From: Streptomyces sp. YIM 121038
GTDB lineage: Bacteria > Actinomycetota > Actinomycetes > Streptomycetales > Streptomycetaceae
Direction: 5' to 3'
Assembly (NCBI RefSeq): GCF_006088715.1
Contig: NZ_CP030771.1
Coordinates: 868,001 to 932,000, forward strand
Length of the DNA: 64,000 nt
Shown here: positions 34,395 through 47,125 of the stretch, one piece after another
Layout: every line of letters starts with the position of its first letter
Position numbering within the stretch: the first letter of the stretch is position 1
Notes under the pieces: generated by a model
Database searches by the model: none
The model's input: the letters and a program-made list of their open reading frames with translations, nothing else
Told to the model about the DNA's origin: nothing
Program-made: the position numbers and the translations under genes

Positions 34395-35705
34395 ATGCTG
34401 CGCGACGGACTCCCTTCCCCCGTCGGTCCCCCCGATCCCCTCGATTCCCTCCTCGACGAACTGGCCCGCGTCTCGACGCTTCCGCTGGAGCGCGGCGAGA
34501 CCCTTCCGGCCCGGGCCTACACCAGCGACTCCTTCCACGCGTGGGAGCGGGAGCGCGTCTTCCGCGGCGACTGGCTGTGCGTCGGCCACGTCAGCCAGGT
34601 CGCGCGACCCGGTGACTATCTGCGTACGGACGTCCTCGGCGAGCCCCTGGTGATCACGCGGGACGAGAGCGGCGGCCTGCACGCGCTCTCGCGGGTGTGC
34701 CGCCACCGCTTCATGGACGTGCTGCCACCCGAGACCACCCCCGAGCAGGGCACGCTCAAGCGGCTCACCTGCCCGTACCACACGTGGACGTACCGGCTGA
34801 ACGGCGAGTACGCCGGGCAGTTGGCCGGGGCGCCGCTGATGAACGAGGTCGACTTCGACCGTGCCGCGTGCCGACTCCCCCGCCACCGCCTGGAGGTGTG
34901 GAACGGGCTGCTCATGGTCAACGCCGACCCCGGCGCACCGGCGCTCGGGCCGCGGCTGACCCGGCTCGACGCCGTGCTCGCGCCGTACCGCATCGCGGAT
35001 CTCGTCGTCGCGTACACGGCGCGCTGGGAGAACGTCCCGGCGAACTGGAAGGTGGCCTTCGAGAACGGCTCGGAGAACTACCACCACATGGGCACGCACG
35101 CGGCCACCCTGGAGCCGGTCGTGCCCGGCAAGGACACCGTCGTCGAGGAGTGCGACGGGCGCGGCTTCAGCATGTTCACGCCGTTCGCCGACGAACCGCC
35201 CGGGGAGCCGACCGCCGAACCGGGCGCGGAGCCGACCGTGGAGCCGGGGGCGGACGGCGAGCCACGGGTCGGCACGCTCATCCCCGGGCTCGGCGCCCGG
35301 CAGTCGTCCGGGATGACGGTCGCGGGCCTCTTCCCGAACCTGGTCCTCGCCCTCGTACCGGACAGCGTCACGTTCCTGCGCTGGATTCCGACGGGTCCGG
35401 CCACCCATGACGCGCTCGCGACCGTGCTGGTTCCGGCCGACGCCGCCGACCAGCCGGACTACGCGGCGTATGTGGCCGCGTCGCGGCGGCAGTTGGAGCT
35501 CATCCAGGAGGAGGACCTGGTGGCCATCCGCGGCGTCCAGCGCGGTCTGGCCGCCGAACCGGGCCCGTCCGGCGGGCGGTTCTCGCATCTGGAGCGCCCG
35601 CTGTGGCAGTTCCAGCGGTACTTGGCCGACCGGCTGGTGGACCGCTCGGCGGCGCCGCCCCAGGCCGGTGCCACAGCTGCGGCAGGGCAGCGGGGAAACC
35701 AGTAG
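34395..35705 (+). CDS. Rieske-type ring-hydroxylating oxygenase, alpha subunit
   Basis: A 436-residue oxygenase component. The Rieske [2Fe-2S] ligands are C102-R-H104 and C126-P-Y-H129 (LTCPYHTWTYRL). The catalytic mononuclear iron site is in FENGSENYHHMGTHAATLEP (H230 and H235). The family (choline/carnitine/glycine-betaine and aromatic oxygenases) hydroxylates or demethylates its substrate with electrons from a reductase, which is not encoded nearby. A Pro/Glu-rich insertion (EPPGEPTAEPGAEPTVEPGA) interrupts the catalytic domain after the iron site. ATG 34395 has only a weak GGTGA upstream. A short open stretch after the stop (to 35850) shows no gene. Confidence 0.88.
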   Translation: MLRDGLPSPVGPPDPLDSLLDELARVSTLPLERGETLPARAYTSDSFHAWERERVFRGDWLCVGHVSQVARPGDYLRTDVLGEPLVITRDESGGLHALSRVCRHRFMDVLPPETTPEQGTLKRLTCPYHTWTYRLNGEYAGQLAGAPLMNEVDFDRAACRLPRHRLEVWNGLLMVNADPGAPALGPRLTRLDAVLAPYRIADLVVAYTARWENVPANWKVAFENGSENYHHMGTHAATLEPVVPGKDTVVEECDGRGFSMFTPFADEPPGEPTAEPGAEPTVEPGADGEPRVGTLIPGLGARQSSGMTVAGLFPNLVLALVPDSVTFLRWIPTGPATHDALATVLVPADAADQPDYAAYVAASRRQLELIQEEDLVAIRGVQRGLAAEPGPSGGRFSHLERPLWQFQRYLADRLVDRSAAPPQAGATAAAGQRGNQ

Positions 35706-38899: not shown

Positions 38900-39607
38900 G
38901 GCCCAGCCCCTTCCGCACCGCCCCGGCCCGTCGACGCGGGCCCGCGCCGACGAGAGGACTACACGGTAGGGGCGTACGGGACGGGCGTACGGCACTTCTC
39001 CGGATTCCCGGCGGAAGGGGTGAACGGCCGCCGCCCCGAAGCGAGATCGTCCGTAACGCGCTCTCTCTTCCTTGTACCGCACACGGGGAGGGATTGACCG
39101 ATTCGAGCTGGGCACCTGCCGCAATGGCCAAATCCGGAATATCTCCTTCTTATCTCCCCATGGAGGTGACCGTGTTGTACGCTCGCCGTGAGCCTGACGT
39201 CCGGCCGAGGGGTGGCATCTTGGGTGTGACAGAGGCGCTCACGCGCATGGCTGATTTTCCCCGTCGGCCCTAGCGCAGCCGGGGGCGGCCCGCATGGCCG
39301 GATACCGGCACGAAAACTCAGACCAGCGAGGGGTACGCGTCGGACAACCCGCACGCGAACCCCCACTGTGGCGCTTCGCACTCGCTCCGCACCGGTTCAG
39401 CACTGATCGCCCCGATGCCGTGAAGAACTGCGCTATGCCGACGGTTCATGGAAATGGCTCGCATTGCCGCCTTTCCGCCCAAAGCAACGGCAATTGCGAC
39501 GCATTGACAGGTCGGCACCATCTGACCTTATTCGATCTTGTGGCCGCTCCGACGCCCGGCCTCCACAGAGGCCCCGGACGGCCATACGGGGGAAAAGGAA
39601 GCCGCAC
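38900..39607. other. Long, lower-GC intergenic region upstream of the LuxR-type regulator
   Basis: 708 bp without a convincing gene; base composition is visibly lower in GC than the flanks, especially 39380-39600, as is common before pathway regulators. The best small frame is 39172-39273 (33 residues, GTG start behind GGAGGTGA, VLYARREPDVRPRGGILGVT...), but its codon third positions are not strongly G/C. A 111-codon frame at 39294-39629 overlaps the regulator start and has no coding bias. A 5' leader or regulatory DNA is more likely. Confidence 0.45.
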
Positions 39608-40306
39608 ATGGCTCAGATACGACTGCTGATCGCCGATGACCGCATCGTGACCCGATCCGGTCTCGTGGCGATGAGCAGGGAAGCTCCCGGACTCGATGTG
39701 GTCGGCGTGGCCCAGGACATGGCCGGCGTCGTGACCGCCGTCGACTGCCTGGACCCCGACATCGTCCTCCTCAATCTCCGCAAACTCTCGGGGGACGGCC
39801 TGCGCCGTCTCGCCCAACTCATCGGCGCACACGTCTCGATCATCGTGCTCTGGTGTCATGATTCCGCCGTCACCGTCCAGGACGCGTTACGGGCCAAGGT
39901 CGCCGGATTCATGGCCCTGGAGATCCTGCAAGAGGAATTCGCCGGTGTGATCGCCCTGGTCGACCGCGGCTGCGCCGCCTATCTCTTTCCGCGCGAACGG
40001 ATCCGCGATATCAGCGACGGCTGTTCGACGCCGGTGACCTCGGGGGCGATGTCGACGCTCACATCACGGGAGAGCGACGTACTGCACCTGCTCGCGGGCG
40101 GCATGACGAACAAACAGATCGGTTCCGCCCTGCATATCGCGGAGAACACGGTGAAGAAACACGTGCATCGTGCGATGGGAAAGATATCGGCCTCCAGCCG
40201 CGTGGAAGCCGCACTCCTGGTATCCCGGCTCGGCCCGCTGAACGTGACGGCCCACGGCCGCGCCGCCGCGGGTCAGCAGAAAAGCGATTTGAGCAGCACC
40301 TCATAG
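39608..40306 (+). CDS. LuxR-type response-regulator-like protein with degenerate receiver and TTA codon
   Basis: A 232-residue NarL-type protein. The receiver half (IRLLIADDRIVTRSGLVAMS) keeps the acidic pair D10-D11, but the phospho-acceptor Asp is Asn57 in DPDIVLLNLRKLSGDG, so classical phosphorylation is unlikely. The C-terminal LuxR helix-turn-helix is intact (LTSRESDVLHLLAGGMTNKQ, IGSALHIAENTVKKHVHRAM). Leu94 is encoded by TTA (39887-39889), so expression should depend on bldA. No sensor kinase is adjacent. It sits at the edge of the oxidative gene cluster 41047-45091 and overlaps the 3' end of the convergent TetR gene by 34 bp; a pathway-specific role is likely. Confidence 0.88.
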   Translation: MAQIRLLIADDRIVTRSGLVAMSREAPGLDVVGVAQDMAGVVTAVDCLDPDIVLLNLRKLSGDGLRRLAQLIGAHVSIIVLWCHDSAVTVQDALRAKVAGFMALEILQEEFAGVIALVDRGCAAYLFPRERIRDISDGCSTPVTSGAMSTLTSRESDVLHLLAGGMTNKQIGSALHIAENTVKKHVHRAMGKISASSRVEAALLVSRLGPLNVTAHGRAAAGQQKSDLSSTS

Positions 40307-41022
40307 GTCCGTCCGGCACCGGCGACCGCCGACGCGCCCTGCATCGCCACCTCGTGGCCGAGTGACGTCAGCGCGCCGAGCAGCGCGAGCGCGAGCCGCC
40401 GGGACCCGTCGGCGCCCGCGTCCGCCGCGCCGGGGCAGCCGCGTGCGAGACGGGCCCGCTCCACCAGGCGGACCGTCGGCGACAGCCACCACTGCTCGTC
40501 GATCCGGCGCCACCGCTCGTAGCCGAGGACCGCGGGCGCGTCGAGCAGGAGCACACGGGCGACGGCGGGGTCGGCGCAGAAGCCGAGGAACTCCAGGCCG
40601 GACCGCAGGAGGAGCGGGACGGGCGCGCCCTCGGTGACGCGGCCCTTCCCGCTGCCCTCGACGGCCCGCTCCGCCCCGCCGCCCTCGGTCGCGCGGTCCG
40701 CCCGGCGCCCCTCGGCGACGCGGCCCGCCCCGCTGCCTTCGGCGGCCCGCTCCGCCTCCCCGTCCTCCACGGCGCCGACCGACCCGCCGGACCTGATCCG
40801 GACGGCCAGCTCCCGATGGATGTCGTGCACGACGTCCACCAGCAGCGCCTCCTTGCCGGGCCAGTGGTGGTACAGCGCCCCGGTCGTGAGCCCGGCGCTC
40901 CGCGCGATCTCCGCGATGGTCGTGGCGGAGTACCCACGGTCGCCGAACAACTGACGTGCCGTATCGATGAGTTGGGCCCGGGTGGTCTCGGTGCGCTCTG
41001 CGTTGGATCTGCGCGGCGACAT
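40273..41022 (-). CDS. TetR-family regulator with internal 9-residue tandem repeat
   Basis: A 249-residue TetR protein. Residues 12-70 are the DNA-binding domain (TETTRAQLIDTARQLFGDRG, YSATTIAEIARSAGLTTGAL, YHHWPGKEALL). Between this and the ligand domain lie five copies of a 9-residue unit (residues 90-134). The ligand-binding half starts at about 136 (LLLRSGLEFLGFCADPAVAR) with the TetR_C-like WRRIDEQWWLSPTVRLVERA. ATG 41022 lies inside a 21-bp dyad shared with the divergent thioesterase gene, 24 bp away, so it probably represses that gene and itself. The ligand is unknown, perhaps a pathway product. Confidence 0.9.
   Translation of the reverse strand: MSPRRSNAERTETTRAQLIDTARQLFGDRGYSATTIAEIARSAGLTTGALYHHWPGKEALLVDVVHDIHRELAVRIRSGGSVGAVEDGEAERAAEGSGAGRVAEGRRADRATEGGGAERAVEGSGKGRVTEGAPVPLLLRSGLEFLGFCADPAVARVLLLDAPAVLGYERWRRIDEQWWLSPTVRLVERARLARGCPGAADAGADGSRRLALALLGALTSLGHEVAMQGASAVAGAGRTYEVLLKSLFC
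40621..40755 (-). repeat. Five-copy 27-bp tandem repeat in the TetR gene
   Basis: Units read AERAAEGSG, AGRVAEGRR, ADRATEGGG, AERAVEGSG, KGRVTEGAP. The period of 27 bp is clear at DNA level (CCCTCGG...GCGGCCC on the plus strand). It inserts a charged flexible linker between DNA-binding and ligand domains; this is absent from ordinary TetR proteins. Confidence 0.88.
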
Positions 41023-41039
41023 ACCTAACGATGCTATGT
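41019..41039. promoter_or_regulatory. TetR operator between TetR and thioesterase genes
   Basis: A 21-bp dyad with arms ACATA (41019-41023) and TATGT (41035-41039) around an 11-bp centre. It covers the TetR start codon, and TATGTT (41035-41040) is placed as a -10 for the thioesterase gene whose ATG (41047) follows at once, implying a leaderless mRNA. Confidence 0.5.
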
Positions 41040-41046
41040 TCCTTCG

Positions 41047-41460
41047 ATGATGGATGTCGACGCGGCCCAAGCTGTCCTCGATCACAGCCCCTTCGGCCCC
41101 TGGTGGGGATTCAGGGTGGAAGCCGTCGCCAAGGGGCACGCCAAGGTCTCGCTGCCCCAGCGCCCCGAACTCTTCCGCCCCGGCGGCGTCCTGCAGGGCG
41201 GATGCGCCATGACGCTCGCCGACGTGACCTGCTGGATCGCGATCATGTCGCTGTTCGGCGAGGACGACCCGTCCGTCACCCAGCAGATGACGACGAGCTT
41301 CCTCGGCCCGGCCCGCACCGATCTGATCTGCGAGTCCACCATCGTCAGGCCCGGCCGTCTGATCGTCTACAGCACGGCCGAGACGACCGACACGGCGGGC
41401 AAGCTCGTCTCCCACCACACCCTCACCTACATCCGGCCGCCGCGGCGCGACAGCGCCTGA
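41047..41460 (+). CDS. PaaI-type hotdog-fold thioesterase
   Basis: A 137-residue hotdog thioesterase: ELFRPGGVLQGGCAMTLADV is the central helix with the G-G-x-x-x-x-x-x-x-D pattern (H-x-G-G replaced by LQGG), followed by TTSFLGPARTDLICESTIVR and TAGKLVSHHTLTYIRPP. Members hydrolyse aryl- or short acyl-CoA thioesters, often as proofreaders of CoA pathways. It is the first gene of the plus-strand cluster, controlled by the divergent TetR protein, and probably translated from a leaderless mRNA. 180 bp separate it from the next gene, so that one may have its own promoter. Confidence 0.88.
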   Translation: MMDVDAAQAVLDHSPFGPWWGFRVEAVAKGHAKVSLPQRPELFRPGGVLQGGCAMTLADVTCWIAIMSLFGEDDPSVTQQMTTSFLGPARTDLICESTIVRPGRLIVYSTAETTDTAGKLVSHHTLTYIRPPRRDSA

Positions 41461-41640
41461 GGCCGGGCACTCCCCCGGCCCGCCGGGCACTCGGCCGGAT
41501 CCCGGAAAGCGCCCGGAGTACCACCAAAGAGCCATCGGAATACCCCCATCGTGCCCCAGTGATATGGCCCCAACGTGGCCTGTCGACCTCGCGAGTCGGC
41601 CGGATAGTCTCCATTTCTCGGCTACCCGGAGGAGATTCGT

Positions 41641-42378
41641 ATGGGAGACGTCTTTTCGGAGACTGTAAACCTGGAGAGTGTCGGTGAACTCCCCGAGGAA
41701 TACCACGAGGTACTGACACATCAGATGCTCGCCAATGGCGAGGGCGAGCTGAGTGCAGGCGACACCTACGTCGATTCGTTCTACCCGCTCGCACCCAATG
41801 CCGACGAGCGCTATGTGTGCCTCAAGTTCGGCATGGAAGAGGTGGACCATTTCCGCCGCTTCGCCAAGCTGCTCACGCCGCTCGGCATCGACACCTCGCA
41901 CATGGTGAACCAGGCCGTGGCGGACCGGCGCTATTTCCCGGCCGAGAGCATGACCACCCAGGTCACCGTCTGGGAGGAGCGCGCCGCGTTCAGCTTCCTC
42001 TGCGAGCTCGAAGGGCACTTCCAGATCAAGGAAATGACCACGAGCACCTACGGGCCGCTGCGCGTCGAGGCCGACGCGATCCTCAAGGAGGAGGCCCGGC
42101 ACTTCGGCTACGGCAAGCGCCTGATGCAGGAGGCGTACGACACGGGCGGGCAGTCCCGTGACCGGGCGCAGAAGGCGCTGGACAAGTTCTACCCGATGGC
42201 GCTCGACATGTTCGGGCGGCCCGACTCCCGGCGCGGCCGCCTCGCCGTCAAGTGGGGTCTGCGCAAGCACGACAACGGCGAGCTGCGCGAGCTCTACAAG
42301 GCCGCGATCGCCCAGCACATCGAGAAGATCGGCTTCTCCGTGCCCAAGATCGACCCCTCCCAGCTGCAGTACGCCTGA
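41641..42378 (+). CDS. PaaA-like ferritin-fold diiron protein
   Basis: A 245-residue helical protein similar to the phenylacetyl-CoA epoxidase family (Paa subunits). The diiron signature is present twice: E67-V-D-H70 in GMEEVDHFRRF and E151-A-R-H154 in LKEEARHFGYG, with further Glu in the intervening helix (FLCELEGHFQIKEM). This supports O2 activation for epoxidation, hydroxylation or N-oxidation. The other PaaA-E subunits are not present, so it acts alone or with its neighbour. GGAGGAG precedes ATG 41641. Next gene 75 bp downstream, same strand, also a diiron-type oxidase. Confidence 0.85.
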   Translation: MGDVFSETVNLESVGELPEEYHEVLTHQMLANGEGELSAGDTYVDSFYPLAPNADERYVCLKFGMEEVDHFRRFAKLLTPLGIDTSHMVNQAVADRRYFPAESMTTQVTVWEERAAFSFLCELEGHFQIKEMTTSTYGPLRVEADAILKEEARHFGYGKRLMQEAYDTGGQSRDRAQKALDKFYPMALDMFGRPDSRRGRLAVKWGLRKHDNGELRELYKAAIAQHIEKIGFSVPKIDPSQLQYA

Positions 42379-42453
42379 GCGGCGTCGGCCCGCCCTCCCC
42401 GGCGCATCCGCGCTTCCCCCCGGGCCCCACCCACCTCACCGGAGTAGGAATCG

Positions 42454-43248
42454 ATGACGACGACCGACACGCTGATCGACCGGATCAAGACGCACCGCGT
42501 CTTCGACCACCCCCTCTACGACCACTGGGCCGCACGGCCCCCGACGGCCGAGGTCTCGGGCGCCCTCTTCCACCAGGTGCAGTCGTTCTGCGCCTCCACC
42601 CGCCCCGGCGGCGACTTCCCCACCGCCCTGCGGGGCATCGGCTGGGACGAGCAGGCCGTCCTCATCGAGGAGATCGTCGACAGCGAGTCGGGCCACGGCC
42701 CCGAACTCGCGACGATGGCGGGCCACATCGTCAACCGCACCGGTTCGCCCGTCTTCGACGACGTGTACGACACCGAGCGGGTCGAGGCGTGGCTCAAGAC
42801 GTCGTCGGACCGGCTGCTCGCCGGGCTGCCCGGCTACGACCGCGAGACCGGTCTGACGGCTCAGGCCACGGCCGCCATCGAGGTGTTCAAGCGCCGCTTC
42901 TCCTCCGACACGGACACCACCGTCCGCAACCTGGGCACGGCCCTCGCCCTTGAGATCATCTCCAACCAGTCCCTGATCCCCGGCGAGAAGCGCGCCCTCA
43001 TCGACTCCGGTCATTACAAGACCGACCTCGAAGAGCCGGAAATGCACTACATGGCGGAGCACTGGGGCGACGCGGGTGCCGAGCAGCAGCACGAGGCGAA
43101 TGTGATCCAGGCCGTCTCGTCCGTCATGGACGCCTCGAACAGCGACCAGATCGCCCAGGGCGTGGAGGACTTCCTGGAATCGCTCTGCGCGTTGTGGGAC
43201 GTCCTGGACGCGGCACTGCTCTCGTCCGGACTTCAGCCGACCGAATAG
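42454..43248 (+). CDS. Heme-oxygenase-like diiron oxidase (HDO/iron-containing redox enzyme family)
   Basis: A 264-residue helical protein of the HDO superfamily, which includes UndA, BesC and SznF. Likely ligands are E78-S-G-H81 (EEIVDSESGHGPEL), E167 (GTALALEIISNQSLIP) and the late helix EMHYMAEHWGDAGAEQQHEA with H203, E210 and H213. Characterised members oxidatively decarboxylate fatty acids, cleave amino acids or N-hydroxylate. It is unusual for an HDO gene to sit directly behind a PaaA-like diiron gene. The start is ATG 42454 with GGAGTAGG upstream. Substrate unknown; a link to the neighbouring amino-acid dehydrogenase is inferred. Confidence 0.85.
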   Translation: MTTTDTLIDRIKTHRVFDHPLYDHWAARPPTAEVSGALFHQVQSFCASTRPGGDFPTALRGIGWDEQAVLIEEIVDSESGHGPELATMAGHIVNRTGSPVFDDVYDTERVEAWLKTSSDRLLAGLPGYDRETGLTAQATAAIEVFKRRFSSDTDTTVRNLGTALALEIISNQSLIPGEKRALIDSGHYKTDLEEPEMHYMAEHWGDAGAEQQHEANVIQAVSSVMDASNSDQIAQGVEDFLESLCALWDVLDAALLSSGLQPTE

Positions 43249-43332
43249 TTCACTGCCGGACGGGCCGGCGGTTCACGCCTGACGGCGGGGCCGCCGGTCC
43301 GGCCGTCACCGGACGGAATTCTGGGGTGGGTC

Positions 43333-44409
43333 ATGAGTGTTTTCGACGAAATCGACGGCCACGAGCAAGTGCTTTTCAGCACCGGCCCCGGCGGGCTCCG
43401 GTGCGTCATCGCCATTCATTCGACGCTGTTGGGCCCCGCGCTCGGCGGCGTCCGTTTTCTTCCCTACCGCGACGACGACCAGGCGATCAGCGACGCGCTG
43501 CGCCTCTCCCGGGCCATGACGTACAAAGCGGCGTGCGCGGGACTCGACATCGGGGGTGGCAAGGCGGTCATCTTCGGCGGCTCCGGCGTGGAGAAGTCCG
43601 AGCCGCTGCTCCGCGCCTTCGGGCAGGCCGTCGAGAGTCTTTCCGGCCGATTCATCGCCGCCTGCGACATGGGCATCACCACCGCCGACCTCCGGGTCAT
43701 GCGCAAGGAGTCCCAGTGGATCCGCGGCCTCGACGCCGAGGAGGGCGGCTCCGGTGAATCGGGGGCGATGACCGCGTACGGCGTGAGCCTCGGCATCCGC
43801 GCGTGTCTGCGGCACCTCGACGGCGACGGGAGCCTGGAGGGCCGGCACGTCGCCATCGACGGCGTCGGCAAGGTGGGCGCCCGGCTCGCGACGCTCCTCG
43901 CGGAAGGGGGCGCGCGGCTCACGGTGGCCGACATCGACCAGGAGAAGGCCGAGCAGGTGGCCCGGGCGTGCGGGGCGGAGGTCGTCAGCCGGGAGAAGCT
44001 CTACCTGCTCGACGTGGACGTCCTCAGCCCGAACGCCATCGGCAACGTCATCGACGCCGACCTCGTGGACCGGCTCCGCTGCCGGGTCGTCGCGGGCGGG
44101 GCCAACAACCAGCTCACCGCGCCGACGGTCGCGGACCGGCTCGCGGCACGCGGCATCCTCTACGCGCCGGACTTCGTCATCAACGCGCTCGGCCTGATCC
44201 AGGTGGTCGACGAACTGCACCCCGCGGGCCACGACATGGACCGGGTCAGGCAGCGCGCCGAGCTCATCCCGGAACGCCTCGGCGAGATCTTCAACCGGTC
44301 CCGGCACCTGCGGATCAGCACCGCCGCCGCGGCGATCAGCATGGCCAGGGACCGCCTCGCGGCGGTGCGGACGGTGCGGTCGTTCTGGCTGCCGCCGCGC
44401 TGCGCCTGA
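43333..44409 (+). CDS. Glu/Leu/Phe/Val-type amino acid dehydrogenase
   Basis: A 358-residue NAD-dependent amino acid dehydrogenase. The catalytic Lys motifs are at TYKAA (K65) and GLDIGGGKAVI (K77), the Asp in ACDMGITTADL, and the NAD fold in VAIDGVGKVGARLATLLAEG. Overall it fits leucine/valine/phenylalanine dehydrogenases, which interconvert an amino acid with its 2-oxo acid. Within the cluster it would supply or remove an amino group; which amino acid cannot be read from the sequence. It is 84 bp downstream of the HDO gene and 76 bp upstream of the nitroreductase gene. Confidence 0.9.
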   Translation: MSVFDEIDGHEQVLFSTGPGGLRCVIAIHSTLLGPALGGVRFLPYRDDDQAISDALRLSRAMTYKAACAGLDIGGGKAVIFGGSGVEKSEPLLRAFGQAVESLSGRFIAACDMGITTADLRVMRKESQWIRGLDAEEGGSGESGAMTAYGVSLGIRACLRHLDGDGSLEGRHVAIDGVGKVGARLATLLAEGGARLTVADIDQEKAEQVARACGAEVVSREKLYLLDVDVLSPNAIGNVIDADLVDRLRCRVVAGGANNQLTAPTVADRLAARGILYAPDFVINALGLIQVVDELHPAGHDMDRVRQRAELIPERLGEIFNRSRHLRISTAAAAISMARDRLAAVRTVRSFWLPPRCA

Positions 44410-44485
44410 GCCACCGCCCGCCGGTACGGACCGAGGCCCTGCCCCCGACGAAAGGACGCCCGACCACCATGAGGAGCGACCGCTG

Positions 44486-45091
44486 ATGGAGTTGGAAGCC
44501 GCGATACGCACGCGCCGCAGCCAGCACCGGCTGATCGACCCCGCCCCGAGCGACGAGGAGTTCGTCGATCTGCTCGGCTGGGCCGCGACCGCGCCGGATC
44601 ACGGCCACCTCCGCCCCTGGCGGTGGATCCTCGTGCGCGGCGAGAGCCGGGCGGCGCTCGGCGCGGCCTTCGCGTCCGGCGCCACCGACGCGGAGGCCGT
44701 CCAGCGCGAGGCGCGCAAGCCGCTGCGCGCCCCGCTCCTCGCCACCCTGGTCCTCGTCCCGCAGCGCAACCACCGCGTACCGGACTGGGAGCAGCTGGCC
44801 GCGAGCAGCGCCATGGTCAACTCGCTGATGCTGCTGCTCCACGACCGCGGCTTCGGCAGCATGTGGCGCACCGGCCCCTCGGTCGACTCCACGGGACCCC
44901 GCCTGCTCCTCGACCTGGCCCCGCACGAACGCATCATCGGCTGGCTCTACGTGGGCACCCCGGACCCCACCCGCCGCTCCGCCCCCCGCGCTCCGGTCCC
45001 GGTCGGGCACCGGGTCTCCCTGTTCACCCCGCCGCGGCCCGCGCCGGCGGGGGCCCGCCTCGCGGAGGGGATCACCAGCCCCGTCCCGTAG
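44486..45091 (+). CDS. Nitroreductase-family FMN flavoprotein
   Basis: A 201-residue nitroreductase of the small YdjA-like type: [20 protein letters not shown] (the FMN-binding R-R-S), [40 protein letters not shown] and [18 protein letters not shown]. These use NAD(P)H to reduce nitro groups, quinones or enones, and in biosynthesis also oxidise or dehydrogenate. The start at 44486 overlaps a five-codon frame in a TGATG context. Last gene of the oxidative cluster on the plus strand; the DUF4291 gene follows with its own promoter-like sequence. Confidence 0.88.
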
Positions 45092-45171
45092 CCGGGGCGC
45101 CTGCCCATCCGGCCCCCGCGCGGGGGAAATTGACTCGCCGCGCCGCCGGAGCGGATGACAGGGTGCGGCAC

Positions 45172-45738
45172 ATGTCATCCCTTTACCGGATTCGTGCTGA
45201 CTACGACGCGCGCACGATCGTGCTCTATCAGGCGTACTCGCCCGCCATCGCCGACGCGGCGCTGCGGGCGGGCCGCTTCGTCGCGCCGTTCTCGTTCCAC
45301 CGGATGACGTGGATCAAGCCCTCGTTCCTGTGGTTGATGCACCGCAGCAACTGGGCCCGCAAGTCCGGTCAGGAGCGCGTCCTCGCGGTACGCGTGAGCC
45401 GTGAGGGCTGGGAGGAGGCGCTGTCCCGGGCCGTCCTGACGACCTCGGATCCGGCGGCCGTGGCACAGGCGGCCGTGCACGTCCAGTGGGACCCGGAGCG
45501 CTCGCCGCGCGGGGCGGCGCTGAACCACTACAGCATCCAGGTCGGCATCGGCCGCCATCTGATCCGTACGTTCACCGACGACTGGATCGTCAGCCTCACC
45601 GACCTCACCCCACAGGTCCGCAAGGCGGCCGCCCTCATCCAGAACGGCCACGCCGCCAAGGCCCCACGACTGTTCCCGGCGGAGCGCGTCTACCCCCTCC
45701 CCCGCGCCTTGGAAGACCGCCTCTGCCCCCGCAGGTGA
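45172..45738 (+). CDS. DUF4291 protein
   Basis: A 188-residue protein of the DUF4291 family: [80 protein letters not shown]. Function unknown; members are widespread in bacteria and fungi as small soluble proteins. ATG 45172 starts the conserved domain. A possible promoter TTGACT-N18-GATGAC (45130-45159) lies close upstream, giving a very short leader. Its relation to the upstream oxidative cluster is unclear. Confidence 0.85.
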
Positions 45739-45880: not shown

Positions 45881-47125
45881 GTGCGCAGGATCGCGATCGT
45901 GGGAGCGGGGCAGGCCGGGCTCCAGCTCGGCCTCGGGCTCCTCGGGGCCGGGTACGACGTCACGCTCGTCGCCGAGCGGCGGCCGGACGAGGTGCGCGGC
46001 GGGCGGGTCACCTCGACCCAGCTCATGTTCGGGCCCACGCTGGCGATCGAGCGGGCGGCGGGCCTCGCGTTCTGGGACGACACCGCGCCGGTGATGCCGG
46101 GCTTCGAGCTGAGCAACTGGGATCCACAAGGCGAGCCGGACGCTCCGGTGCGGCGGTTCACCGCGGCCTTCGACGACGAGGTGCGCTCGGTGGACCAGCG
46201 GGTGAAACTCGCGGCCTGGCTGGAGCTGTTCGAGGAGCGCGGCGGACGCGTCGAGTACCGCGCGGTCGGCCCCGCCGAGGTGGCCGCGCTCGCCGCGGCG
46301 CACGAGCTGACCGTGCTCGCCACCGGCCGCGGCGACCTGTCGGCGCTCTTCGGCCGCGACGACGCCCGGTCCGTCTTCGACCGCCCGCAGCGCTCCCTCG
46401 CCTGCTTCTACGTGCACGGCGGCGCCCACGAGGACGCCGACCCGGCGGCCGCGTACGTACGCAACACAGGGGTGCCGCCGACCGGTGACGTGATCATGCT
46501 GCGGGCGCTCACGGTCGGCGGGCCCTGCGACATCCTGCTGTTCGAGGGCCGGTGGGGCGGGGCCTACGACTGCTGGAGCGACCGGCCCGAGCCCGCCGAC
46601 GGGCTGCGGCGGGCGCTCGGCCTGCTGCGGACGTACGCGCCCTGGGAGTACGAGCGCTTCCGCACGGCGGAGCTCACCGACCCGGGTGCCGCCCTGTACG
46701 GCGCGGTCACCCCGGTGGTCCGCCACCCGGTGGCGCGCCTCGACGGTGGCCTGTGCGTCCTCGGCATGGCGGACGTCATCGCCGTGCACGACCCCATCAC
46801 CGGGCAGGGGTCCAACAACGCGGCGCGGGCGGCGTCCCGTTACCTCGCGGCCATCGTGGAGCGGGGCGGGCGGCCGTTCGACGAGGACTGGATGCGGGAG
46901 ACGTTCGCCGCGTACTGGGAGACCGCCCGGCACACGCACGCCTTCACCGACATGATGCTGCGCGATCCCCAGCCCGAGCACGTGGGACGGGCCATCGGGG
47001 CCGCCTTCGACCACGCGGAGACCGCCCACCGCTTCGCCAACGGCTATGCCGATCCGCTCACTTACCGCGACTGGCTGATGGACCCGGCCGGAGCGGAGGC
47101 CTATCTGGCCCGGCTCGACACATAG
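45881..47125 (+). CDS. StyA-like styrene/indole monooxygenase, FAD-dependent
   Basis: A 414-residue class E flavoprotein monooxygenase. The FAD fingerprint is VRRIAIVGAGQAGLQLGLGL at the start, with the StyA-specific ERRPDEVRGGRVTSTQLMFG, RGDLSALFGRDDARSVFDRP and GMADVIAVHDPITGQGSNNA. These epoxidise alkenes such as styrene and indole using reduced FAD from a partner reductase (StyB), which is not encoded nearby; the adjacent quinone reductase uses a different fold. GGAGG (45871-45875) is 5 nt from GTG 45881. The last 25 bp overlap the 3' end of the convergent XRE gene. Confidence 0.9.
   Translation: MRRIAIVGAGQAGLQLGLGLLGAGYDVTLVAERRPDEVRGGRVTSTQLMFGPTLAIERAAGLAFWDDTAPVMPGFELSNWDPQGEPDAPVRRFTAAFDDEVRSVDQRVKLAAWLELFEERGGRVEYRAVGPAEVAALAAAHELTVLATGRGDLSALFGRDDARSVFDRPQRSLACFYVHGGAHEDADPAAAYVRNTGVPPTGDVIMLRALTVGGPCDILLFEGRWGGAYDCWSDRPEPADGLRRALGLLRTYAPWEYERFRTAELTDPGAALYGAVTPVVRHPVARLDGGLCVLGMADVIAVHDPITGQGSNNAARAASRYLAAIVERGGRPFDEDWMRETFAAYWETARHTHAFTDMMLRDPQPEHVGRAIGAAFDHAETAHRFANGYADPLTYRDWLMDPAGAEAYLARLDT

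What the first reader, a model, noticed from the sequence alone, without database searches (positions are those of the whole stretch)
39608..45091. Compact oxidative gene cluster with no known scaffold enzyme
Seen: a LuxR-type regulator and a TetR protein flank, and the TetR gene is divergent from, a one-direction series of thioesterase, PaaA-like diiron protein, heme-oxygenase-like diiron oxidase, Glu/Leu/Val-type dehydrogenase and nitroreductase. Known: HDO enzymes (UndA, BesC, SznF) and ferritin-type diiron oxygenases build unusual groups (alkenes, N-hydroxy, nitro) in natural products; amino acid dehydrogenases supply 2-oxo acids. Inference: a small pathway from an amino acid or acyl-CoA to an oxidised product. 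I recall no characterised cluster with exactly this gene set.
Basis: partly seen in the sequence, partly recalled or inferred. Interest (0 to 1): 0.78.

Follow-up and report, generated by a model that had tools for sequence, protein, structure and literature searches.

The report
Conserved two-diiron-enzyme pathway, product unknown
A small, self-contained set of bacterial genes that pairs two different iron enzymes of oxygen-activating families is kept together in Streptomyces and, in a shorter form, in Chromobacterium, and probably makes an unidentified oxidised small molecule.

Summary
39608-45091 carries LuxR- and TetR-type regulators, then thioesterase (TE), PaaA-type diiron protein, heme-oxygenase-like diiron oxidase (HDO), Val/Leu-type dehydrogenase (DH) and nitroreductase (NR). 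In seven Streptomyces loci in three surroundings these are the only genes called in all (NR in 6 of 7), which fixes the boundaries. A three-gene core, TE-PaaA-HDO, occurs in 5 of 61 Chromobacteriaceae genomes. HDOs scored as PaaA-partnered fall in one clade (18 of 19 rows), and HDO and PaaA-type distances correlate. The HDO model matches characterised HDOs best (HrmI, CADD, BesC), with six candidate iron ligands invariant in 30 of 30 relatives, though Pfam, NCBIfam and PDB sequence searches missed it. The PaaA-type protein keeps the six PaaA ligand positions (recalled) in 36 of 36. No ligase, carrier protein or exporter is in the unit. Most likely it is a small biosynthetic operon: oxygenation of an acyl-CoA, release by TE, further oxidation by HDO, with DH linking to an amino acid in Streptomyces. 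Substrate, product and step order are inferred. The paper searches made here found no cluster with this gene set.

The parts
39608..40306 (+). LuxR/NarL-type regulator with a receiver that lacks the usual phospho-accepting Asp (LLNL in its place)
   Evidence: GerE 65.9 bits, Response_reg 28.4 bits, below its cut-off of 30.2; Asn at the Asp position in 7 of 7 Streptomyces rows aligned; present in 7 of 7 loci
40273..41022 (-). TetR-family regulator, divergent from the enzyme genes and convergent with LuxR
   Evidence: TetR_N 68.2 bits, TetR_C_41 33.2 bits; 7 of 7 loci
41023..41046 (.). 24-bp divergent control region with an invariant 14-bp block AACGATGCTATGTT (41027-41040), an imperfect dyad; overlaps the second hexamer of the only promoter-like site found (minus strand, 41060-41031)
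   Evidence: 14-bp block identical in 7 of 7 loci; promoter scan of 39400-45400: 1 found, mean 0.2 in shuffles; sequence read. Operator role is inferred
41047..41460 (+). Hotdog-fold (4HBT) thioesterase
   Evidence: 4HBT 39.1 bits; TIGR00369 39.6 bits, cut-off 36.6; PaaI equivalog TIGR02286 18.8 bits, cut-off 118.9, not met
41641..42378 (+). PaaA-type ferritin-like diiron protein, 245 aa
   Evidence: PaaA_PaaC 66.9 bits; PaaA equivalog TIGR02156 51.5 bits, cut-off 280, not met; six positions aligned to the PaaA iron ligands (recalled) invariant in 36 of 36 rows
42454..43248 (+). Heme-oxygenase-like diiron oxidase/oxygenase (HDO), 264 aa
43333..44409 (+). Glu/Leu/Phe/Val-family amino acid dehydrogenase, nearest to actinobacterial valine dehydrogenases
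   Evidence: ELFV_dehydrog_N 79.1 and ELFV_dehydrog 64.5 bits; nearest non-cluster relatives 52-58% identical, many named valine dehydrogenase; Lys65 and Lys77 (catalytic roles recalled) invariant in 17 of 17; cluster DHs form one clade
44486..45091 (+). Small nitroreductase-family flavoprotein, YdjA-like
   Evidence: Nitroreductase 73.5 bits; PRK10828 110.8 bits, cut-off 183; 6 of 7 Streptomyces loci

Best explanation
The unit is a self-contained, sporadically distributed biosynthetic operon. Its core is a thioesterase plus two diiron-family enzymes that work in series on one small substrate. Proposed route: (1) the PaaA-type enzyme oxygenates (epoxidises or hydroxylates) an acyl-CoA drawn from primary metabolism; (2) the hotdog thioesterase releases the oxygenated acid; (3) the HDO carries out a second oxidation (desaturation, C-C cleavage or N-oxygenation) on the free acid or its amino acid; (4) in Streptomyces, the Val/Leu-type dehydrogenase interconverts 2-oxo acid and L-amino acid, so that the skeleton enters or leaves as a branched-chain-like amino acid; (5) the nitroreductase-type flavoprotein either reduces the oxidised product or feeds electrons to a diiron enzyme. 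A TetR protein bound to a conserved 14-bp site would switch both divergent transcripts, and the LuxR protein would act without phosphorylation. Shown: gene content, conservation, co-occurrence of the two diiron-family genes, predicted fold of the HDO, conservation of candidate ligands. Inferred: every reaction, its order, the substrate class and the regulation.
For: The seven genes are the only ones called in 7 of 7 Streptomyces loci in three surroundings, NR in 6 of 7. TE-PaaA-HDO without DH or NR in 5 of 5 Chromobacteriaceae loci carrying the PaaA-type gene, out of 61 genomes. 18 of 19 HDO rows scored as PaaA-partnered lie in one clade of 22 (100/94); the other 4 rows there are of unknown context, and none of the 20 rows from loci without a PaaA-type gene in the held flanks falls inside. 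HDO and PaaA-type distances correlate, r 0.70 over 12 pairs, 0 of 5000 permutations as high (see evidence against). Cluster DHs form one clade (99/96). HDO structural matches are led by amino-acid-acting or related HDOs. Six PaaA-ligand positions (recalled) invariant in 36 of 36. Related HDOs without PaaA sit by amino-acid or acyl genes: Val/Leu-type DH in 7 Variovorax loci; EamA transporter and an AlaRS-related protein in Variovorax, isopropylmalate synthase and fused ETF in Amycolatopsis; acyl-CoA thioesterase plus NR in a second NRRL B-1347 locus; fused ETF and NRPS in S. curacoi. Precedent for a ferritin-like N-oxygenase and an HDO in one valine-derived cluster: HamC and HamA (passages of PMC11705231, and PMC11659414); HamA's role there is putative.
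Against: Chromobacterium lacks DH and NR in the unit and L009 lacks NR, so neither is needed everywhere. There is no CoA ligase, PaaB/C/E partner or electron-transfer protein in the unit; PaaA normally needs PaaC and PaaE (recalled). Two Streptomyces genomes with the unit have another PaaA-like match elsewhere (60-64 bits), so partners could be borrowed there, but not seen in the two Chromobacterium genomes. In metagenomes HDO, PaaA and DH genes were linked by equal contig length, not by DNA. Two such links look wrong or odd: P0042/P0133 (HDO outside the clade; r is 0.62 with it in) and P0246, a DH of the same length as P0015/P0125 but outside the DH clade. Against the 13 rows of unknown context the label 'with PaaA' needs 4 changes on the tree, not 1. 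Shared ancestry alone also makes distances correlate. Absence of an exporter is unusual for a secreted antibiotic.
Confidence: 0.45

Rival explanations
1. N-oxidation pathway in the manner of ham/pvf: DH or the cell's amino acid pool supplies a branched-chain amino acid, one diiron enzyme N-hydroxylates it, the HDO completes oxidation to an oxime, nitro or N-nitroso-type group, and the nitroreductase adjusts the N-oxidation level.
For: HDO top structural hits are N-oxygenase HrmI; HamC plus HamA precedent on L-valine; secondary AurF matches in 20 of 36 rows of the PaaA-type family at E up to 1, best 4.3e-6; nitroreductase near HDOs of this family in three contexts: the unit, L021, L025.
Against: No NRPS or carrier protein, whereas ham loads valine on an NRPS; PaaA_PaaC, not AurF, is the main family (66.9 vs 15.2 bits); the thioesterase has no role in this scheme; NR is missing in Chromobacterium and L009.
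Confidence: 0.25
2. A catabolic operon for an unusual aryl or acyl acid or amino acid, with PaaA-type ring or chain oxygenation, thioester hydrolysis and deamination by DH, under TetR control.
For: TetR-controlled operons with thioesterase and PaaA-like enzymes resemble degradation operons (recalled); DH can run towards deamination.
Against: No uptake transporter, CoA ligase, ring-cleavage or beta-oxidation gene in the unit; the three-gene core stands without DH in Chromobacterium; rare: in class and genus samples only the centre genome itself had it, 1 of 394 and 1 of 391; a related HDO sits beside an NRPS.
Confidence: 0.15
3. HDO acts as a UndA-like or nitrile- or alkene-forming enzyme on the acid freed by the thioesterase, giving a volatile or membrane-diffusible product that needs no exporter.
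Against: UndA ranks below HrmI, CADD, BesC and PolF; the DH points to amino acids; no substrate evidence.
Confidence: 0.1

Closest known systems
ham/pvf diazeniumdiolate clusters (fragin, valdiazen)
   Same: One ferritin-like diiron N-oxygenase (HamC) and one HDO (HamA) in a cluster that starts from a branched-chain amino acid (passages)
   Different: HamC is AurF-like, here PaaA-type; ham has an NRPS, cupin and cyclase-like protein, here thioesterase, dehydrogenase and nitroreductase and no NRPS
Phenylacetyl-CoA epoxidase PaaABCDE and PaaI thioesterase
   Same: PaaA_PaaC family protein with the PaaA ligand positions, beside a hotdog thioesterase
   Different: No PaaB, C, D or E in the unit; far below the PaaA and PaaI equivalog cut-offs; joined to an HDO
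Characterised HDOs: HrmI, CADD, BesC, PolF, UndA, SznF, MboA
   Same: Fold (HrmI, CADD, BesC, PolF, UndA) and a 3-His/3-carboxylate candidate ligand set (ligand sets of SznF and MboA read in passages)
   Different: At most 18% identity over the aligned part in the 50 rows listed; no sequence match in PDB at E 0.001 with the single sequence, and only BesC at E 0.52 with the profile; different gene partners
Mangotoxin MboA/MboB
   Same: HDO with a partner redox protein in a small cluster (PMC13185094, part 1 of 6 and passages)
   Different: MboB is a flavin/Fe2S2 reductase and the substrate a tripeptide; here the second redox enzyme is itself of a diiron family

Membership tests
Heme-oxygenase-like diiron oxidases/oxygenases (HDO) | Heme-oxygenase-like helical fold | tested here: met
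Heme-oxygenase-like diiron oxidases/oxygenases (HDO) | 3-His/3-carboxylate dinuclear iron site | tested here: inconclusive
   E78, H81, E167, H203, E210, H213 invariant in 30 of 30 and ExxH as in MboA Glu86/His89; the spacing H203-E210-H213 differs from SznF (H311-D315-H318) and MboA (H172-D176-H181). Assignment by sequence and helix position only; no coordinates were available
Heme-oxygenase-like diiron oxidases/oxygenases (HDO) | Fe- and O2-dependent oxidation | not testable with these tools
   Needs assay
Phenylacetyl-CoA epoxidase subunit PaaA | PaaA_PaaC domain with the six diiron ligands | tested here: met
   66.9 bits; E36, E67, H70, E122, E151, H154, aligned to ligands recalled from PaaA, invariant in 36 of 36
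Phenylacetyl-CoA epoxidase subunit PaaA | Equivalog score above the curated cut-off | tested here: not met
   TIGR02156 51.5 bits, cut-off 280
Phenylacetyl-CoA epoxidase subunit PaaA | Encoded with PaaB, PaaC and PaaE | tested here: not met
   None among the five enzymes of the unit. The Chromobacterium neighbours were not scanned for PaaB or PaaE; a second PaaA/PaaC-type match was absent from both Chromobacterium genomes searched with A2 at E 0.001
ham/pvf-type diazeniumdiolate pathway | NRPS (HamD/PvfC) with AurF-like N-oxygenase | tested here: not met
   No NRPS in the unit; AurF match 15.2 bits, cut-off 29.6
Val/Leu-type amino acid dehydrogenase | ELFV domains with catalytic lysines | tested here: met
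   Both Pfam domains above cut-off; Lys65 and Lys77 (roles recalled) invariant in 17 of 17 rows
Tryptophan dehydrogenase ScyB | Equivalog score above the curated cut-off | tested here: not met
   316.3 bits, cut-off 600

The most novel reading that the evidence does not exclude
A PaaA-type ferritin-like diiron oxygenase and an HDO form an obligate two-enzyme relay, with a thioesterase as the only other constant part, and carry out an undescribed oxidation on a CoA-derived or branched-chain amino acid substrate. This minimal three-gene pathway is found in Actinomycetota and Pseudomonadota and was extended in Streptomyces by a dehydrogenase and a nitroreductase. The HDO belongs to a family of at least 318 proteins, uncharacterised as far as the searches here show, that recurs with changing partners (methyltransferase, PhyH, fused ETF, nitroreductase, desaturase-like protein) in unexplored pathways.
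Probability: 0.4. Interest if true: 0.8.

Novelty: new variant of a known kind. Interest (0 to 1): 0.58.

Why it matters
HDO enzymes make rare groups (alkenes, alkynes, nitriles, azetidines, N-oxides). This one was missed by Pfam, NCBIfam and PDB sequence searches at the thresholds used, and is tied to a second diiron-family enzyme of a different fold. A three-gene core that could be expressed whole in E. coli makes the question of what the pair does directly testable, and the seven-gene boundaries give a clean deletion target.

Tried and rejected
Trp dehydrogenase or indole pathway: rejected. ScyB is far below cut-off, and the StyA-like monooxygenase at 45881-47125 is shared with only 1 of the 6 other Streptomyces loci (L005), as part of wider synteny, so it is outside the unit. 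Anti-phage defence: no PADLOC hit at E 0.001 for the five enzymes. Plasmids: no HDO match in the plasmid collection. Searches for a described cluster: 10 of 14 papers listed; 0; 1; 7 with at least 2 of 3 terms; 0; 3; 0; none of the titles and abstract openings listed describes this gene set, but most of those papers were not opened. One search was for ham. The library holds open-licence papers only. Papers: PMC13185094 part 1 of 6 and passages; PMC13061610, PMC11705231 and PMC11659414 passages; the rest search listings only. A distant PaaA-like sister (177-221 bits) in 16 of 391 Streptomyces genomes was not taken as a member; in the two loci read (L041, L042, other genomes found) it lies by radical SAM and carrier-protein-like genes. 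A model of the PaaA-type protein and a Foldseek run on the HDO were not obtained, the machine being busy at every try.

Dropped rows and limits: the protein listings show 120 of 318 HDO hits and 120 of 7468 DH hits, 8000 candidates scored; 30 and 36 rows went into alignments A1 and A2; trees used chosen rows, 52 and 48. The quoted r of 0.70 leaves out P0042 and two near copies (L006, L010); r is 0.84 over all 15 pairs and 0.62 over 13 with P0042. L036 (partial) and L004 (weak) were not used. The genome scan needs exact peptide patterns and may miss loci. Gene calls in loci were made by my own ORF scorer, which can misplace starts or miss genes: it missed the TE of L034 and L080, which tblastn then found. 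Early notes say three surroundings for the Chromobacteriaceae loci; on recheck L079 shares one neighbouring gene with L034 and L081, so two are clearly different and the third partly so.
Full report
What is there. The window is part of an 11.1-Mb genome in two contigs, of the genus Streptomyces as judged by the company it keeps (a genome of its genus set has the contig length of the S. curacoi record). The given stretch holds seven genes: a LuxR-type regulator (39608-40306 +), a TetR regulator (40273-41022 -), a hotdog thioesterase (41047-41460 +), a PaaA-type protein (41641-42378 +), an HDO (42454-43248 +), a Glu/Leu/Phe/Val-family dehydrogenase (43333-44409 +) and a small nitroreductase (44486-45091 +). 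The five enzyme genes are co-directional with gaps of 180, 75, 84 and 76 bp. TetR starts 24 bp from the thioesterase start; a 14-bp block there is identical in 7 of 7 Streptomyces loci and overlaps the one promoter-like site found in the region.

Is it a unit? One scan of the genome collection with an HDO profile returned 32 loci. Six are near relatives (90-95% HDO identity). In the window and these six, the seven genes are the only ones called in all (NR missing in L009, where DH is followed by the flanking gene of its relatives and tblastn finds no NR), and the surroundings are of three kinds. DUF4291, the StyA-like monooxygenase, the XRE regulator and the quinone reductase-like gene downstream are shared only with L005, so they are outside. 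In Chromobacteriaceae, 5 of 61 genomes hold the PaaA-type gene. In 5 of 5 of these loci thioesterase, PaaA-type gene and HDO stand in a row, and tblastn at E 0.001 finds no dehydrogenase, nitroreductase, LuxR or TetR of the unit in the 11-21 kb held. Two surroundings are clearly different; the third (L079) shares one neighbouring gene with the others. The PaaA-type gene is rare: in samples of 394 class genomes and 391 genomes of the genus it was found only in the genome at the centre of each search; a distant sister occurs in 2 and 16 others. The HDO itself was found in 4 of 392 genus genomes: the own one, two at 56-58% and one weak match.

The two diiron-family genes travel together. Of 46 PaaA-type hits, 11 have the same longest-contig length as an HDO hit among the 120 listed (52361, 14769, 5761, 3295, 4956, 3052, 5483, 7023, 7915503, 8025, 7275), two of them with the same organism name. 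Equal length is a proxy for the same contig and can be chance. In a tree of 52 HDOs, 18 of 19 rows scored as PaaA-partnered lie in a clade of 22 with support 100/94; the other four rows of that clade have unknown context, and none of the 20 rows from loci without a PaaA-type gene falls inside. Counted against the 13 rows of unknown context, the label needs 4 changes. The exception, P0042, may be a chance length match. HDO and PaaA-type distances correlate at r 0.70 over 12 pairs, 0.62 with P0042, 0 of 5000 permutations as high in either case; common descent of the hosts could give part of this. DHs on contig lengths that also hold HDO or PaaA-type hits (among them P0172, P0174, P0176 at 60-63% identity) group with the near Streptomyces DHs in one clade, 99/96, so the DH link looks older than the near relatives. 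One DH of matching length (P0246, 5761) falls outside that clade and is probably a chance match. The genome has a second, 48% identical dehydrogenase elsewhere.

The PaaA-type protein. It aligns with PaaA over most of its length, and the positions of the PaaA iron ligands (recalled: Glu42, Glu72, His75, Asp126, Glu156, His159) are filled by E36, E67, H70, E122, E151, H154, invariant in 36 of 36. It is far below the PaaA equivalog cut-off and the unit has no PaaB, C or E. The two Chromobacterium genomes searched (G778, G779) gave no second match to its profile, while the two Streptomyces genomes (G780, G781) gave one ordinary PaaA-like match each.

Other contexts of the HDO family. Variovorax: methyltransferase, DUF1330, EamA transporter, an AlaRS-related protein, Rieske protein, a 44-46% identical dehydrogenase (7 loci) and an M20 peptidase; domains were scanned in one locus, L016. 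Paraburkholderia: FA_desaturase-family protein, PhyH, and an EamA-like transporter by reading. Pseudonocardia: PhyH, nitroreductase, ThiF-family protein, a second Haem_oxygenas_2 protein and an aminotransferase. Streptomyces NRRL B-1347, second copy: nitroreductase and an acyl-CoA thioesterase of another family. S. curacoi: fused ETF, PhyH and NRPS. Amycolatopsis: fused ETF, isopropylmalate synthase, ThiF-family protein and an AMP-binding protein. These neighbours point to amino-acid or acyl substrates. LuxR-type regulators without the usual receiver Asp lie near several actinobacterial members.

How it most likely works. The thioesterase and the PaaA-type enzyme imply a CoA thioester that is oxygenated and then freed. 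The HDO then acts on the free acid or amino acid, as characterised HDOs do on amino acids and fatty acids. The dehydrogenase ties the skeleton to a Val/Leu-type amino acid. The nitroreductase either reduces the product or serves as an electron donor; its absence in L009 and Chromobacterium argues against an essential role. The main rival is an N-oxidation pathway modelled on ham, where a ferritin-like N-oxygenase oxidises valine held on an NRPS and an HDO is thought to act later (passages of PMC11705231 and PMC11659414). A catabolic role is less likely since ligase, uptake and ring-cleavage genes are absent from the unit.

Verdict. The inference of a small oxidative pathway is partly supported; product and reaction order remain open. 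The new points are the PaaA-type/HDO pair, its minimal three-gene form in another phylum, and the little-known HDO family behind it.

Noticed in passing
L041 6936-7661 and 15575-16294; L042 9717-10436: A distant sister of the PaaA-type protein lies next to a radical SAM protein; L041 also has an AurF-family protein, a 4HBT thioesterase and a class IV aminotransferase, and by reading carrier proteins and ketosynthases. 177-221-bit relatives occur in 16 of 391 Streptomyces genomes.
   Followed up: partly
L012-L018, L022, L035 (Variovorax): A conserved neighbourhood of methyltransferase, HDO, DUF1330, EamA transporter, AlaRS-related protein, Rieske protein and, in 7 of these 9 loci, a Val/Leu-type dehydrogenase, as might be expected for an amino acid analogue with its own protection.
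   Followed up: partly
L025 8977-16410 and L031 6227-14363: HDO-family genes a few kb from a ThiF-family protein; L025 also has a second Haem_oxygenas_2 protein and an aminotransferase, L031 an isopropylmalate synthase and fused ETF.
   Followed up: partly
window 45881-47125: Styrene/indole monooxygenase-like flavoprotein (356 bits to PDB 7z97); no reductase subunit was noticed beside it, none was searched for; shared only with L005 of the six other loci.
   Followed up: no
window 34395-35705: A Rieske-type ring-hydroxylating oxygenase alpha subunit-like protein upstream of the unit (Ring_hydroxyl_A 104.2 bits, Rieske 61.5 bits); shared with L005.
   Followed up: no
window 41461-41640: The 180-bp gap between thioesterase and PaaA-type genes is longer than the other gaps and could hold a second promoter; the simple sigma-70-type scan found none there.
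   Followed up: no
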